Origin: an uncultured Pseudobutyrivibrio sp.
GTDB lineage: Bacteria; Bacillota; Clostridia; Lachnospirales; Lachnospiraceae
Assembly: GCA_946403965.1 (NCBI GenBank)
Contig: CAMJBT010000015.1
Coordinates: 1-52,459, forward strand
DNA length: 52,459 bases
Direction: 5' to 3'
Of the stretch, positions 1,165 through 5,961 are shown in pieces; the first letter of the stretch is position 1, and the number at the start of each line of letters is the position of its first letter. The position numbers and the translations under genes were made by a program. The notes under the pieces were generated by a model. That model was not told where the DNA came from. It did no database searches and saw only the letters and a list, made by a program, of their open reading frames with translations.

Positions 1165-1323
1165 TATTCTTCCCTTTTACCTGTATTTTTCCCTATTTGC
1201 AGATCTAAATCCCGCAATCCATTATACAGTATAACACAACTTTTTCATTTATGTTACAAATATTACGTTGCCCCAATTCACACCAATTCCCACACACTCC
1301 AGAGACCCTAACCAATCCCAACA

Positions 1324-1921
1324 GCTCCCCAAATTTATCCTCCCAAAGCCTCCCACCCCGGCAGGGCACCTCTCTTCGTCCTTGGCATGATTGACCAAGA
1401 ATTTTGCATTTTCTTAATACTACTTCTGAGCTTTCGTAGGTGTACTTTCACAGCTTTTACAATTCTTGAAGAAATGTGTGAACTGCACAGACACAGAATT
1501 TAATTTATATAAATGCATCATGAACAGTACTAGGGATTACTTGTCCTCATATTACATTCGCCAAGAGGAATCAGGAAACTGAGTTTTGTGAATTTGGGCA
1601 CCGTTCGAGATTCACGTCCATGTTCAACTCTCCCTGACCTCGCCGTCCATGGCTCGGTCTGCCCAAATTCGCAAAACTCACTTTCCATTCCTCTAGGCTC
1701 ATTCCAAAATCGAACAAGTAATCCCTAGTACTGTTCATGAAGCATTTACTCAAGTTGTTGACTGTGTCTGTGCAGGGCAAACAGAACTGAAAGAATTGTA
1801 AAACTTTGAAAGAACACCTACTAATAAGAACGCGAGGAAGTAGTATTTAGAAAATACAAATTCTTGGGCTTTGCCAAGGACGAAGAGAGGTGCCCTGCCG
1901 GGGTGGGAGGCTTGGGGAAGC
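1324..1921. mobile_element. Large foldback (inverted-repeat) element, MITE-like
   Basis: This 815-bp gene-free gap (1165-1979) is mostly one long inverted repeat. The outermost block is 41 nt and perfect (1346-1386 against 1873-1913), and GC-rich. Further perfect blocks are 13 nt (1484-1496 with 1762-1774) and 27 nt (1518-1544 with 1714-1740), and an inner stem GTTTTGTGAATTTGGGC pairs with 1662-1678 with one mismatch. Intervening stretches also align with mismatches and small indels. The apex lies near 1600-1660. No transposase frame is present, and the reading frames inside are fragments. A non-autonomous foldback element is the best reading; a very long hairpin RNA is the alternative. The outer GC-rich end shares a motif with the palindromic element at 21485-21621. 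Confidence 0.7.
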
Positions 1922-1922
1922 A

Positions 1923-1959
1923 AAAAAATAGAGAGCCAATCGGGATTGATTAGGCTCTC
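1923..1959 (-). terminator. Terminator after alaX-like gene
   Basis: GAGAGCCAATC (1931-1941) pairs with the segment ending GGCTCTC at 1959, and on the minus strand is followed by a run of seven T (1929-1923). It lies 20 nt after the editing-protein stop and immediately abuts the foldback element. Confidence 0.8.
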
Positions 1960-1979
1960 CATGATATTTAATTGGTGTG

Positions 1980-3125
1980 TTAAAGGGTTTGTTCGATGAC
2001 GCTTCTTGTGGCATTTATGCTGCCTTGTGCCATTTGTGGACTTCCGCCACATTTTGCCCCTAAAAGTTCTCTAAGGCCTGTTGCAATGGCTTTGCAATCC
2101 CTTGTACGGCTTCCAATGACAAAGTTGTAGCCTTCATCATCATTTCCTGAGAAAATGGCACAAAGTCCAGAATGTTTTTCAACCAGAGCGTTTACTCCAT
2201 CTCTCATATTCTTTGAATCTATATCCTCTGTGAAGATCGTTACGTCTGCAAGCTCAGATGGATAGGCCTGGATTTTGTCTAAAAGGATTTTTGCTTTTAT
2301 CTCAGAAATATCATAATTCAATTGCTTATTATTTTTCATTATTGAAGTGATTTTTTCTGGAATTTCATCCTCCTGGCAATTAAGCAGTTGGTATGCCTTT
2401 GATAAGATATCCATTCTGCGGTTGTAATCTTTAAGTGCTCTAAGTCCGCAAAGAAAATATACACGTACGCCACCTTTGTACTTTTCAAAGGATGTCACCT
2501 TTACCATTCCAACCTGACCAGTTGATTTCACATGTGGAGCACAGCAAGCACAAAAGTCAATTCCTTCCACTTCGACTATACGAATCGGTCCGTCTATTTC
2601 TTTTTTGCTGCGGTATTCAAGTGTTGCCAATGATGCTTCATCTGGATAATAAGCTTTTACTGGCACATCTGCTGCTACTACTTCATTTGCAAGACGCTCA
2701 ATAAAAGCTATCTGTGTATCATCTAATTCTATATTGAGATCTAAAGTGACTGTATTGTCGCTAAGGTGAAAGCCTACATTTTCAGCACCATAAATATTAT
2801 GTGCCAAGCCTGTAAAAATATGCTCTCCTGTGTGCTGCTGCATGTTGCCAAAGCGATGATGCCAATCTATGATACCAGACAAGGTAGCGCCTACCTCAAA
2901 AGCCCTATCGCAGTAGTGCACGATTTCATCATCCTCTACCTGTACATCAATTACTTTGCCTTCACCAAGTAGTCCTATGTCACTGGTCTGACCGCCCTGC
3001 TCCGGGAAAAACGCGGTCTGATTCAAGACAACTCTATAGCCCTTTTCTGATTCCTGACAAGACTCTACCTGTGCTTCAAATTCTCGTAAAAAAGCATCAT
3101 TGTCATATAATGCAATTGTTTTCAT
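1980..3125 (-). CDS. Alanyl-tRNA editing protein, AlaX-L type with DHHA1 domain
   Basis: 381 aa cytoplasmic trans-editing hydrolase expected to deacylate mischarged Ser- or Gly-tRNA(Ala). The N-terminal beta-barrel is followed by a zinc-binding editing core with QQHTGEHIF (His98, His102) and a C-x3-H pair in CACCAPH (Cys194, His198). The C-terminal part is a DHHA1 domain ending in CGGSPQMAQGS, typical of AlaRS-derived proteins. The catalytic aminoacylation domain of AlaRS is absent, so this is not alaS. AGGAG precedes the ATG. An uncharacterised 139-aa gene lies 45 nt upstream on the same strand and may be co-transcribed. Confidence 0.9.
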   Translation of the reverse strand: MKTIALYDNDAFLREFEAQVESCQESEKGYRVVLNQTAFFPEQGGQTSDIGLLGEGKVIDVQVEDDEIVHYCDRAFEVGATLSGIIDWHHRFGNMQQHTGEHIFTGLAHNIYGAENVGFHLSDNTVTLDLNIELDDTQIAFIERLANEVVAADVPVKAYYPDEASLATLEYRSKKEIDGPIRIVEVEGIDFCACCAPHVKSTGQVGMVKVTSFEKYKGGVRVYFLCGLRALKDYNRRMDILSKAYQLLNCQEDEIPEKITSIMKNNKQLNYDISEIKAKILLDKIQAYPSELADVTIFTEDIDSKNMRDGVNALVEKHSGLCAIFSGNDDEGYNFVIGSRTRDCKAIATGLRELLGAKCGGSPQMAQGSINATRSVIEQTL

Positions 3126-3170
3126 TAATTAATCTCCTGAAACATAAACCAAAAGATTTACTTTATTATT

Positions 3171-3590
3171 CTAGTTTTTTCCGATAGGAATACCAAAGAT
3201 TTTTGTTTGGAACCCTTCATATAGCGTGTTGTAATCAGTGTAACTAATGTTGCACTTGAAATGCTGATTCCAAACTTCTTTCAAAGTGTCGCAGATTTCT
3301 GATCCGTTTTCTTCCTCTGAAAGGATTGTAGGAAATACATAATAAATCATGAAATAGTTGAGGTTCATCTGGTCTGTCCCGCGAACCTTTCCAAACTTTT
3401 TAAAGCTTGTAAAAACATCCTCACAAAACTGATTACATTCTGCTGCAACATCATCAGACTTTACCAAAGTTGTAAGTTCCCCATATCTATCATCTTTAAA
3501 TTTGCTGGTATGTGCCTCGTATTCTTTCTTACTATGAACCTTGCTTAAATAGGCTACATCCTCAAAAATCTTATTAACGTTGTAACTCAT
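3171..3590 (-). CDS. Conserved hypothetical protein
   Basis: 139 aa, soluble, with no signal peptide or membrane segment. It looks largely helical and is rich in Lys, Glu, Phe and Tyr, and has no motif I recognise. It is followed by the alanyl-tRNA editing gene on the same strand. Its codon use resembles its neighbours and its frame is intact, so it is probably a real gene, but I cannot name a function. Confidence 0.65.
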   Translation of the reverse strand: MSYNVNKIFEDVAYLSKVHSKKEYEAHTSKFKDDRYGELTTLVKSDDVAAECNQFCEDVFTSFKKFGKVRGTDQMNLNYFMIYYVFPTILSEEENGSEICDTLKEVWNQHFKCNISYTDYNTLYEGFQTKIFGIPIGKN

Positions 3591-3686
3591 AACACCTTCT
3601 CCATTTCTGAACTACTATTTTTGAAAAATTCTTGCTCAAACGAACCTAAAATCATTCAACTAGGTGCTATTTTACAATATTTCACG

Positions 3687-3692
3687 TATAAT
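3687..3692 (+). promoter_or_regulatory. Putative -10 box for ylmH-like gene
   Basis: A perfect TATAAT lies 24 nt before the ATG. I do not see a convincing -35 hexamer at normal spacing. AAAGGA at about 3704-3709 is the ribosome-binding site. Confidence 0.45.
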
Positions 3693-3716
3693 TAAAACTC
3701 ACAGAAAGGAAATATT

Positions 3717-4484
3717 ATGAACGACGATGAACTGTTTTTTTACAAAAGATTATTAGAGCTTTCCAATAGAGCCTATCAAAATAATATCTATACCTTCAGC
3801 GATTTTCTAAGTCTTAGTCAGCAGGAGGTTATGTATCAGGTTGCAAGAGATAAAGCATTTGCACCTATCTCCTATGATTTGTTTGGCGGCTATGAAAACT
3901 GTGAAAGGAAAATGGTTCGCTTCGGAAGTGAAGCAGACTTTGGATATGATGTAGATTTTCCTATTAAATGCATAAAAGTGGAACCTTTGGCAAAAAAATT
4001 TGCAAAAGAATATACCCATAGGGATTATCTTGGTTCACTGATGAGTCTTGGAATTGACCGAAAAAAATTCGGCGATATCTTCGTTGATGGTATGGATGCT
4101 TATATCTATGCCGATGAATCTACCGCCGATTATCTTCTTGAAAATTTTATTTCTGTTGGCAGAAACTCTGTAAAGTGCTCCTACTCAGAGCTCCCAGAAT
4201 CCTTCAAAAAAGCAGCTCTTAAGGAAGCCACCATTCAGGTTGCATCTCCACGTGCAGATGCAGTCATTGCCCGAGTCTACAACCTAAGCCGTAAGGATAC
4301 ACTGCCTTATTTCACTGAGAAAAAAGTTTCTGTGAATGGTCATATAGTTGAAAATAACGACAAAATACTTTCCGCTGGCGACTCAGTATCAGTCCGTGGA
4401 TTTGGTAAATTTAATATTGTAGAAGAGTGTGGGCTGTCCCGAAAAGGGAAACTCAATCTAATAGTTGAGATATTTGGGAGATAA
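3717..4484 (+). CDS. ylmH: YlmH-like RNA-binding protein (S4 domain)
   Basis: 255 aa. The N-terminal two thirds match the YlmH layout, an RRM-like fold, and the C-terminal S4 RNA-binding domain occupies about residues 180-245 (SPRADAVIARVYNLSR through VSVNGHIVENNDKIL). In other Firmicutes YlmH is encoded in the division cluster with sepF and divIVA and has been linked to rescue of stalled ribosomes. Here it stands alone. Its 3' end overlaps the 3' end of the convergent NAD(P)HX repair gene by 32 bp, with no terminator between. Symbol by family similarity only. Confidence 0.8.
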   Translation: MNDDELFFYKRLLELSNRAYQNNIYTFSDFLSLSQQEVMYQVARDKAFAPISYDLFGGYENCERKMVRFGSEADFGYDVDFPIKCIKVEPLAKKFAKEYTHRDYLGSLMSLGIDRKKFGDIFVDGMDAYIYADESTADYLLENFISVGRNSVKCSYSELPESFKKAALKEATIQVASPRADAVIARVYNLSRKDTLPYFTEKKVSVNGHIVENNDKILSAGDSVSVRGFGKFNIVEECGLSRKGKLNLIVEIFGR

Positions 4485-5961
4485 TATCTCCAGCCAACAA
4501 TCCTTTGATTCCAACTGAAGCTGATGCAATGGTTCCAGCTGCTCCATGCACATAGGCTCCAGCCTTGGCTGCGAACATTGCATCATACTTTTGACCAAGC
4601 AAAGCACCAATTATTCCTGCTAGCACATCTCCACTTCCCGGCGTTGCCAGGGCTTCATTTCCACTACAGCAATAGTATTCTTTTCTACTATCACATATCA
4701 CTTCTGTATGATTTTTCAAAACTACAATACAATTATGTTTTGAAGCAAATTTTTTTGCTGTATCAGCCATAGTGTAGTTTATTTCCTTTAATTGTTGTCC
4801 ACACAATCGCTCCATTTCCTTTAGATGAGGAGTAAGAATGACAGGAACACGCTCACCAATTTTATCCAGCAAATCAATTTCTTTGGATAACAGGTTCAGG
4901 CCATCTGCATCTATTATTACAGGCACCTCGATTTGTCTTGCCACCGTTTCCATTATCTTAATTGAATCATCACTCACAGCCAGTCCCGGACCTACAACCA
5001 CCGCATCTGCCCATGCCAGCTGTGCTTTGAGGCCATCTTCATCATAGGATTTATAACCTTTGTACATAGCTTCTGGCAGGTTCTGTTGAATAGATGAAAT
5101 ATTGTTTTCATGGGTGTAAACCTTTACCAGACCAGCACCTGAAACAAGTGCTGCCTTTGCTGCTAAATAACAGGCTCCATATATTTCCTCACTGCCTGCT
5201 ATCACAAGAACCTTGCCACAATTTCCTTTGTTGGCCGTCACACTTCTTTTTGAAATCCCCTCCAAAATAGTTTTATCAATGAGTTCTGCAACATCTTCTT
5301 TTCTGGTATATATTCCAACATCCTCAACCTTCACATTTCCTGAAGCGACCTTGCACTCTCCAAGTACAAGTCCTTTTTTCATATATGCAAAGGTGACGGT
5401 AGTTGATGCACTAACTCCAGCTTCTCCTAAAAGTTTTCCACTATCTGTATCAAATCCAGATGGCATATCCACAGCAACAACAGACTTTCCACTTTCATTT
5501 ATAAATCTGGCGGCAACGGCAAACTCTCCTTCAAGGCCACGGGTAAGTCCAATACCAAACATAGCATCTACGAACAGGTCACAATCCCCGAATTGCTTTG
5601 ACAATTCTTTGACGCTGATATCATCTATATTCCATGGATAGATAATTTCGGTACCATAATTTCCTGCTATCTCAAGCTCTTTTCTAAGAGATGCAGAAAA
5701 CCTCTTTGAGTCTCCTAACATGATGACTTTAACTGACACACCCCTGGTATGAAGAATTCTTGCTATAGCTACACCATCTCCACCATTGTTTCCAGGGCCA
5801 CAGAACACACCTACCTTTTTTGTATCTTTAAAATCTTCTGAAATTACTCTACAGACACAGAGCGCTGCCCTCTCCATCAAAACCAGGCCTGGTACACCAA
5901 AACGCTCTATTGTCTCTGTATCACATGCCTTCATTTCTGCTGCTGTTAATATTTTTTTCAT
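4453..5961 (-). CDS. nnrDE: Bifunctional NAD(P)H-hydrate epimerase / ADP-dependent dehydratase
   Basis: 502 aa metabolite-repair enzyme. The N-terminal YjeF_N domain (about 1-215) carries GPGNNGGDG (residues 55-63) and epimerises damaged NAD(P)HX. The C-terminal ribokinase-like domain (about 230-500) contains PGSGDVLAGIIGALLGQ, with the catalytic Asp at residue 445, and performs the ADP-dependent dehydration to NAD(P)H. Length and domain order are normal for the bacterial fusion. The ATG follows a weak AGG-type site. It converges on the ylmH-like gene and overlaps it by 32 bp. Confidence 0.92.
   Translation of the reverse strand: MKKILTAAEMKACDTETIERFGVPGLVLMERAALCVCRVISEDFKDTKKVGVFCGPGNNGGDGVAIARILHTRGVSVKVIMLGDSKRFSASLRKELEIAGNYGTEIIYPWNIDDISVKELSKQFGDCDLFVDAMFGIGLTRGLEGEFAVAARFINESGKSVVAVDMPSGFDTDSGKLLGEAGVSASTTVTFAYMKKGLVLGECKVASGNVKVEDVGIYTRKEDVAELIDKTILEGISKRSVTANKGNCGKVLVIAGSEEIYGACYLAAKAALVSGAGLVKVYTHENNISSIQQNLPEAMYKGYKSYDEDGLKAQLAWADAVVVGPGLAVSDDSIKIMETVARQIEVPVIIDADGLNLLSKEIDLLDKIGERVPVILTPHLKEMERLCGQQLKEINYTMADTAKKFASKHNCIVVLKNHTEVICDSRKEYYCCSGNEALATPGSGDVLAGIIGALLGQKYDAMFAAKAGAYVHGAAGTIASASVGIKGLLAGDIISQISQLLD

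What the first reader, a model, noticed from the sequence alone, without database searches (positions are those of the whole stretch)
1324..1921. ~600-bp imperfect foldback element filling an intergenic gap
The arms pair over nearly 300 nt each, with perfect blocks of 41, 27 and 13 nt and co-linear imperfect stretches between. Nothing inside is a convincing gene. This is far longer than a terminator or an ordinary REP hairpin. The outermost segment is GC-rich and better conserved than the middle, as expected for transposon ends, while the inner pairing is kept despite substitutions in both arms, as would be needed for RNA structure.
Basis: seen in the sequence. Interest (0 to 1): 0.7.

Follow-up and report, generated by a model that had tools for sequence, protein, structure and literature searches.

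The report
Mobile foldback DNA with TwoAYGGAY tip
A 700-base hairpin-shaped DNA insertion in a rumen bacterium is one of many mobile copies whose tip is a known "RNA motif" of unknown function, and its arms seem to stay matched through DNA copying rather than because an RNA needs them.

Summary
The foldback is real (MFE -354 against -163 kcal/mol in shuffles) and larger than reported: about window 1280-1979. It is an insertion: six relatives align flush across the site without it. It belongs to a dispersed non-coding family in Pseudobutyrivibrio. Its tip is the Rfam motif TwoAYGGAY (RF01731, minus strand 1550-1708, 62 bits), found in 27 of 29 genus genomes, at least 38 copies in one. Of 24 sister copies with both 14-bp ends, 6 have exact 8-bp target duplications and 9 at least 7 of 8 (0.45 expected), so the family is mobile and MITE-like; its transposase was not found. 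The arms are unusual. Inner arms and tip are conserved between copies, whereas an outer GC-rich block pairs within each copy but differs between copies. G-U pairs do not exceed A-C mismatches in the arms, so the pairing does not look selected as RNA. In two orthologous pairs the interior is inverted with breakpoints in or near that block; in another the tip is replaced. Arm homogenisation plus spacer inversion is what replication template switching is reported to produce. The transposon idea is supported; the RNA-covariation idea is not, except perhaps for the tip.

The parts
1280..1979 (-). Whole foldback element, strand given as that of the TwoAYGGAY motif; outermost paired ends CACACCAATT (1280-1289) and AATTGGTGTG (1970-1979), directly after the stop codon of the gene 1980-3125(-)
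   Evidence: Arm display to 271 nt beyond the core; sequence; 6 of 28 relatives align flush without about 709 bp between window 1267 and 1977-1980
1550..1708 (-). Tip: TwoAYGGAY motif RF01731 with two ATGGAC loops
   Evidence: cmscan 62.2 bits, gathering 43; both loops found by pattern
1388..1549 (.). Inner arm, one side; sequence conserved between copies, imperfectly paired with 1709-1871
   Evidence: Arm display; 90% identity to the C16 copy over window 1380-1879
1709..1871 (.). Inner arm, other side
   Evidence: As above
1346..1387 (.). Outer GC-rich block, one arm: 42 nt perfectly paired with 1872-1913; sequence differs from that of the C16 copy
   Evidence: Perfect pairing; C16 homology stops at window 1380-1879
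1872..1913 (.). Outer GC-rich block, other arm
1280..1345 (.). Outermost, weakly paired part of one arm
1914..1979 (.). Outermost part of the other arm, including a small hairpin whose sequence recurs at four other places of the own genome
   Evidence: side hits for window 1925-1969

Best explanation
It is one copy of a non-autonomous, foldback (MITE-like) mobile DNA family that carries the TwoAYGGAY motif at its tip. Shown: the family is dispersed, the window copy is an insertion, and sister copies have 8-bp target duplications. Inferred: an unidentified transposase acting on the ends moves it, and copies persist between genes, often just after a stop codon. Also inferred: each copy's arms stay complementary because the two inverted repeats exchange sequence with each other, by replication template switching at the hairpin or by arm-to-arm recombination. 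That process changes both arms of the outer block together and sometimes flips or swaps the interior. The conserved tip and inner arms may be needed for movement or may make a short RNA; this is not resolved.
For: Copies in the own genome at C16, C35, C42, C63, C1 and C28 and in 24 of 29 genus genomes by DNA, 27 of 29 by RF01731. Six flush empty sites. 24 end-matched copies: 6 exact and 9 at least 7/8 target duplications, shuffled mean 0.45, maximum 4 of 5000 shuffles; one exact case is the C1 copy of the own genome. Block: own opposite arm is the nearest relative of the left arm in 55 of 76 copies, inner arm in 3 of 76. Compensated double changes in the block, mostly one-sided changes in the inner arms. 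G-U against A-C: 290/379 inner, 366/460 outer in 76 copies; 134/130 and 68/82 in a reduced set. Interior inverted between orthologous sites with breakpoints about 150-210 nt from the core. Young copies with mixed arms (L175, L182) beside copies homogenised to either version (L094, L100). Template switching homogenises arms and inverts spacers (PMC8604942, abstract and passages; PMC7202029, abstract and introduction).
Against: No transposase was found; the IS4 candidate failed. The window copy itself shows no clear target duplication and its ends differ from the 14-bp ends of the duplicated family. 15 of the 24 end-matched copies have fewer than 7 of 8 matching flank bases. Most genomes are drafts, so flips and swaps may partly be assembly errors. 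In some pairs block double changes are not compensated (L093/L099: 0 of 6). The block is not always faster: it is as conserved as the rest in L152/L161. Template switching was inferred from end states; no event was seen.
Confidence: 0.68

Rival explanations
1. It is a large structured non-coding RNA (for example a CsrA-sequestering sRNA) on the TwoAYGGAY strand, and the long arms are an RNA stem kept by selection.
For: Tip matches RF01731; published prediction of CsrA binding (PMC4333381, passages); CsrA is found in 28 of 29 TwoAYGGAY-positive genomes against 22 of 32 negatives over the cut-off; 29 apical hairpins have 4 G-U, 0 A-C and 16 G-A pairs.
Against: No G-U excess in the arms; only 29 of 109 cores keep two or more exact AYGGAY loops and 24 keep none; no promoter above chance; orientation relative to the neighbouring gene balanced, 33 to 27; the CsrA co-occurrence is confounded by kinship.
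Confidence: 0.15
2. Mobile foldback element, but the arm pairing is kept by selection for a DNA hairpin needed for transposition, not by arm-to-arm copying.
For: Pairing without wobble preference; long paired arms in most genus copies, 76 of 109 with over 190 nt.
Against: The family's 8-bp duplications and terminal repeats resemble ordinary DDE transposition (general knowledge), which needs no long hairpin; copies long resident at orthologous sites still pair; mixed-arm young copies and interior inversion are not predicted.
Confidence: 0.12
3. The tip unit inserts into the centre of pre-existing unrelated palindromes, which form the outer arms.
For: An IS4-family element of these genomes does sit in hairpin loops; outer arms differ between copies.
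Against: Young copies share block and ends and have the duplication outside them; the empty site read in full has no such palindrome; no duplication seen at the block/inner boundary (by eye).
Confidence: 0.04

Closest known systems
TwoAYGGAY RNA motif (Rfam RF01731)
   Same: The tip scores 62.2 bits over the cut-off of 43, with two ATGGAC loops.
   Different: Rfam models 168 positions; here it is the tip of a 700-bp foldback that moves. In three readable loci of other Lachnospiraceae genera the pairing extends only 50-78 nt beyond the core, in G032 and G036 32-129 nt.
Bacterial MITEs / foldback transposons
   Same: Non-coding, multi-copy, terminal inverted repeats, 8-bp duplications in sister copies, empty sites.
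   Different: Long arms with a copy-specific paired block; no parent transposon found.
REP/REPIN elements
   Same: Dispersed intergenic palindromes.
   Different: REPs are described as 20-40 bp (PMC3733652, search listing); this is about 600-750 bp. A RAYT partner was not tested.
Quasipalindrome / template-switch mutagenesis
   Same: Arm homogenisation and spacer inversion (PMC8604942, abstract and passages).
   Different: The inversions reported there are of spacers of a few bp in yeast; here arms are 200-300 nt and the flipped segment is about 500-600 bp.

Membership tests
TwoAYGGAY RNA (RF01731) | Covariance-model score over the gathering cut-off | tested here: met
   62.2 bits against 43
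TwoAYGGAY RNA (RF01731) | Two AYGGAY hairpin loops | tested here: met
   Two ATGGAC in the window core; but only 29 of 109 family cores have two or more
TwoAYGGAY RNA (RF01731) | Made as an RNA | not testable with these tools
   No transcript data
MITE (non-autonomous DNA transposon) | Terminal inverted repeats | tested here: met
   Foldback to CACACCAATT ends in the window copy; 14-bp ends in 24 sister copies
MITE (non-autonomous DNA transposon) | Target-site duplication | tested here: inconclusive
   Clear in 9 of 24 sister copies; none evident for the window copy by reading
MITE (non-autonomous DNA transposon) | Several copies and empty sites | tested here: met
MITE (non-autonomous DNA transposon) | Parent element with the same ends | tested here: inconclusive
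   Ends sought in 7 genomes; IS4 candidate rejected; no other candidate
CsrA-sequestering sRNA | CsrA in the same genomes | tested here: met
   28 of 29 positives; also 22 of 32 negatives
CsrA-sequestering sRNA | CsrA binding | not testable with these tools
   Prediction only (PMC4333381, passages)
Structured RNA, long arms | G-U commoner than A-C on the sense strand | tested here: not met
   290/379 and 366/460; 134/130 and 68/82
REP/REPIN | Short palindrome of 20-40 bp | tested here: not met
   About 700 bp

The most novel reading that the evidence does not exclude
In Pseudobutyrivibrio, and perhaps more widely in Lachnospiraceae, the TwoAYGGAY "RNA" is mainly the tip of a mobile foldback DNA element. 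Its self-complementary arms, including a copy-specific hypervariable block, are kept paired by template switching between arms, which also flips and swaps the interior. DNA-level arm homogenisation would then imitate the base-pair covariation by which structured RNAs are recognised.
Probability: 0.35. Interest if true: 0.72.

Novelty: new variant of a known kind. Interest (0 to 1): 0.55.

Why it matters
It gives an orphan Rfam family a physical context, a mobile foldback element. It offers a natural family of long palindromes in which arm-to-arm copying in bacterial chromosomes could be watched. It also warns that covariation in palindromic mobile DNA need not mean RNA structure; counting G-U against A-C on the claimed strand is a cheap check. 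Long palindromes are commonly held to be unstable in bacteria (recalled), yet some of these are found at orthologous sites of different species.

Tried and rejected
IS4-family transposase as mobiliser: first accepted because an element in G028 seemed to share the 14-bp end. Rejected when its own ends proved to be CAATGTCATTAAGTTAA and several related copies proved to sit in hairpins with the loop duplicated.

First G-U/A-C count (756/961 over 109 copies) had 11 loci in antisense orientation; repeated with orientation corrected on 76 long-armed copies. The early orthologue profile had the same fault for some pairs; replaced.

Hypervariability as a constant fast mutation rate: rejected as a general statement, because the block is as conserved as the rest in L152/L161 and only partly diverged in L058/L115, but nearly unalignable in L060/L062. 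4-fold sites of the L060/L062 flanks are 78% identical (which also counted some shadow reading frames).

Insertion of the inner unit into unrelated palindromes: rejected. Terminator or attenuator: one weak terminator-like site, at chance level. Coding: no convincing ORF. Papers on bacterial foldback MITEs with covarying arms: none seen in the listings. Of 109 copies, 33 with arms of at most 190 nt, some of them cut by contig ends, were left out of the long-arm counts. In one search three of six loci (L283, L284, L287) were misplaced or near contig ends and are not used.

Full report
WHAT IS THERE. The reported inverted arms are real and far beyond chance. The perfect blocks are 42, 27, 14 and 13 nt. 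Pairing continues past the reported coordinates to about 1280 and 1979, ending in CACACCAATT...AATTGGTGTG, directly after the stop codon of the gene 1980-3125(-), which has alanyl-tRNA-synthetase-type domains (PF07973, PF01411). The next gene on the same strand carries a YARHG domain (427-1164); a promoter-like site at 1248-1221 lies outside the insertion, but the scan finds no more sites than shuffles do.

IT IS AN INSERTION. The flanking gene was found in all 29 genus genomes searched. Of the 28 relatives, six (G021, G020, G022, G028, G027, G005) align up to both sides of the site and have 3-7 bp where the window has about 709 bp. The G021 site, read as sequence, shows the stop codon, a short spacer and the next gene. 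The other 22 align less closely at the junction and were not scored.

IT IS A FAMILY. The own genome holds further matches at C16 (90% identical over 57-556 of the 598-base query), C35 (78%), C42 (the two arms adjacent, tip missing), C63 (partial), C1 and C28 (tips of C1, C16 and C28 also by RF01731). DNA matches occur in 24 of 29 genus genomes, own included, RF01731 matches in 27 of 29, with 38 in G008, where the scoring stopped at 38 candidates. In the wider family 35 of 200 genomes match, with at most 13 candidates scored per genome; 0 of 14 control genomes match. All 15 named loci with an inner-arm pattern are Pseudobutyrivibrio. The minus-strand tip is the TwoAYGGAY RNA, first listed among candidate structured RNAs (PMC2864571, passages) and predicted, not shown, to bind CsrA (PMC4333381, passages).

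IT MOVES. Many copies of G008 are homologous over about 610 bp, with ends GTTACYATTCACRG. Among 24 copies from several genomes with both ends (at most 3 mismatches in all), six have identical 8-bp flanking repeats and nine at least 7 of 8; shuffled flanks give 0.45 on average and never more than 4 in 5000 trials. One of the six is the C1 copy of the own genome; another (L167) also holds an IS110-type gene. Fifteen of the 24 fall below 7 of 8; that these are older is inference. The window copy has different ends and no clear duplication. The mover is unknown: an IS4-family element was considered and rejected.

ANATOMY. In 34 aligned G008 copies a middle of roughly 480 columns is conserved (0.76-0.95 per 20-column bin), flanked on each side by about 40 GC-rich columns (0.62-0.66 G+C) where conservation drops to 0.56-0.58. 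Yet within a copy these stretches pair. Across 76 long-armed copies the left block (150-215 nt from the core) is closest to its own right block in 55, but the left inner arm to its own right arm in only 3. Between close copies, inner-arm changes are mostly one-sided, while in the block many changes are double (135 pairs compared, 40 printed): L154/L158 has 14 double changes, all Watson-Crick, and 6 single; but L093/L099 has 6 double changes, none compensated.

DNA OR RNA PAIRING. If a transcript of the TwoAYGGAY strand were selected for its arms, G-U should be commoner than A-C. It is not: 290/379 in inner and 366/460 in outer arms of 76 copies, with A-C ahead in 45 copies and G-U in 21 for the outer arm; 134/130 and 68/82 in a set reduced for similarity. 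The outer stem of the core itself gives 118/108. The 29 distinct apical hairpins give 4 G-U, 0 A-C and 16 G-A pairs, too few to decide but in the direction of RNA. No known RNA was run as a control of this test.

FLIPS AND SWAPS. Eight orthologous-site pairs were called from both flanks: four with the tip in the same orientation, four inverted. One of the same-orientation pairs (L093/L147) rests on a 126-nt right flank only. In L043/L044 core and arms are 87-100% identical per 30-nt bin on one strand out to about 210 nt, while the flanks are collinear on the other strand from about 180 nt outward; L059/L165 switches at about 150-210 nt. In L058/L115 the arms are mostly 70-100% identical per bin, but the core and the nearest 60 nt only 55-65%, so the tips belong to different variants. 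In L060/L062 flanks and inner parts are mostly 77-100% identical, but block bins fall to 45-57% (25-45% in the 20-nt bins). Interiors group mostly by genome or species group even for shared sites: L089 and L155 share a site, yet each is nearest to copies of its own genome. Independent insertion at the same site is not excluded for the distant pairs, and draft assemblies may misplace such sequences.

MECHANISM. Template switching at imperfect inverted repeats makes arms identical and can invert the spacer (PMC8604942, abstract and passages; PMC7202029, abstract and introduction). Both signatures appear here. I therefore favour transposition by an unidentified transposase (movement shown, enzyme inferred), then arm exchange during replication or recombination (inferred), with constraint on tip and inner arms (inferred). 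None of the 24 end-matched copies lies inside a long ORF; 9 of 24 lie within 11 nt of a facing stop codon. For the 76 long-armed copies the nearest facing gene is co-oriented with TwoAYGGAY in 33, opposite in 27, and absent within 120 nt in 16.

WHAT IS NEW. Seven papers hold the term TwoAYGGAY (five listed) and four hold RF01731. In the passages seen of five of them none mentions a mobile element or long arms, although one notes extra covarying pairs that lengthen a helix of TwoAYGGAY (PMC7657543, passage). PMC7682815 was seen only in a listing. Absence from print beyond these searches is not claimed.

Noticed in passing
L254, L255, L256, L258, L253 (G024, G013, G010, G006, G025): IS4-family elements (ends CAATGTCATTAAGTTAA) sit in short palindromes, mostly followed by T runs like terminators, with about 9-11 bp of the loop duplicated.
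   Followed up: partly
L118 (G028:C1:1517000-1522000), 2407-4510: Foldback arms on both sides of a relative of the IS4 transposase: another element seems inserted in the TwoAYGGAY tip.
   Followed up: partly
L167 1008-3352 (G014:C197): A foldback copy with an exact 8-bp duplication holds an IS110-type transposase gene (PF01548, PF02371).
   Followed up: partly
L168 1001-1193 (G000:C53) and L172 274-467 (G019:C77): A second non-coding type of about 193 bp with the same 14-bp ends and a different interior.
   Followed up: no
window 1925-1969: A small hairpin inside the element's outer end recurs at four other places of the own genome: two in C1, one each in C42 and C16 (side hits).
   Followed up: no
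G036:C47:139778-140356 and C33:53805-54433; also G138:C1:72285-72913 and 113114-113694: Pairs of TwoAYGGAY matches in opposite orientation a few hundred bases apart, seen repeatedly.
   Followed up: no
outer blocks of many copies, e.g. window 1346-1387: The 5' arm of the block is C-rich on the TwoAYGGAY strand (0.34 C, 0.21 G over 76 copies); unexplained.
   Followed up: no
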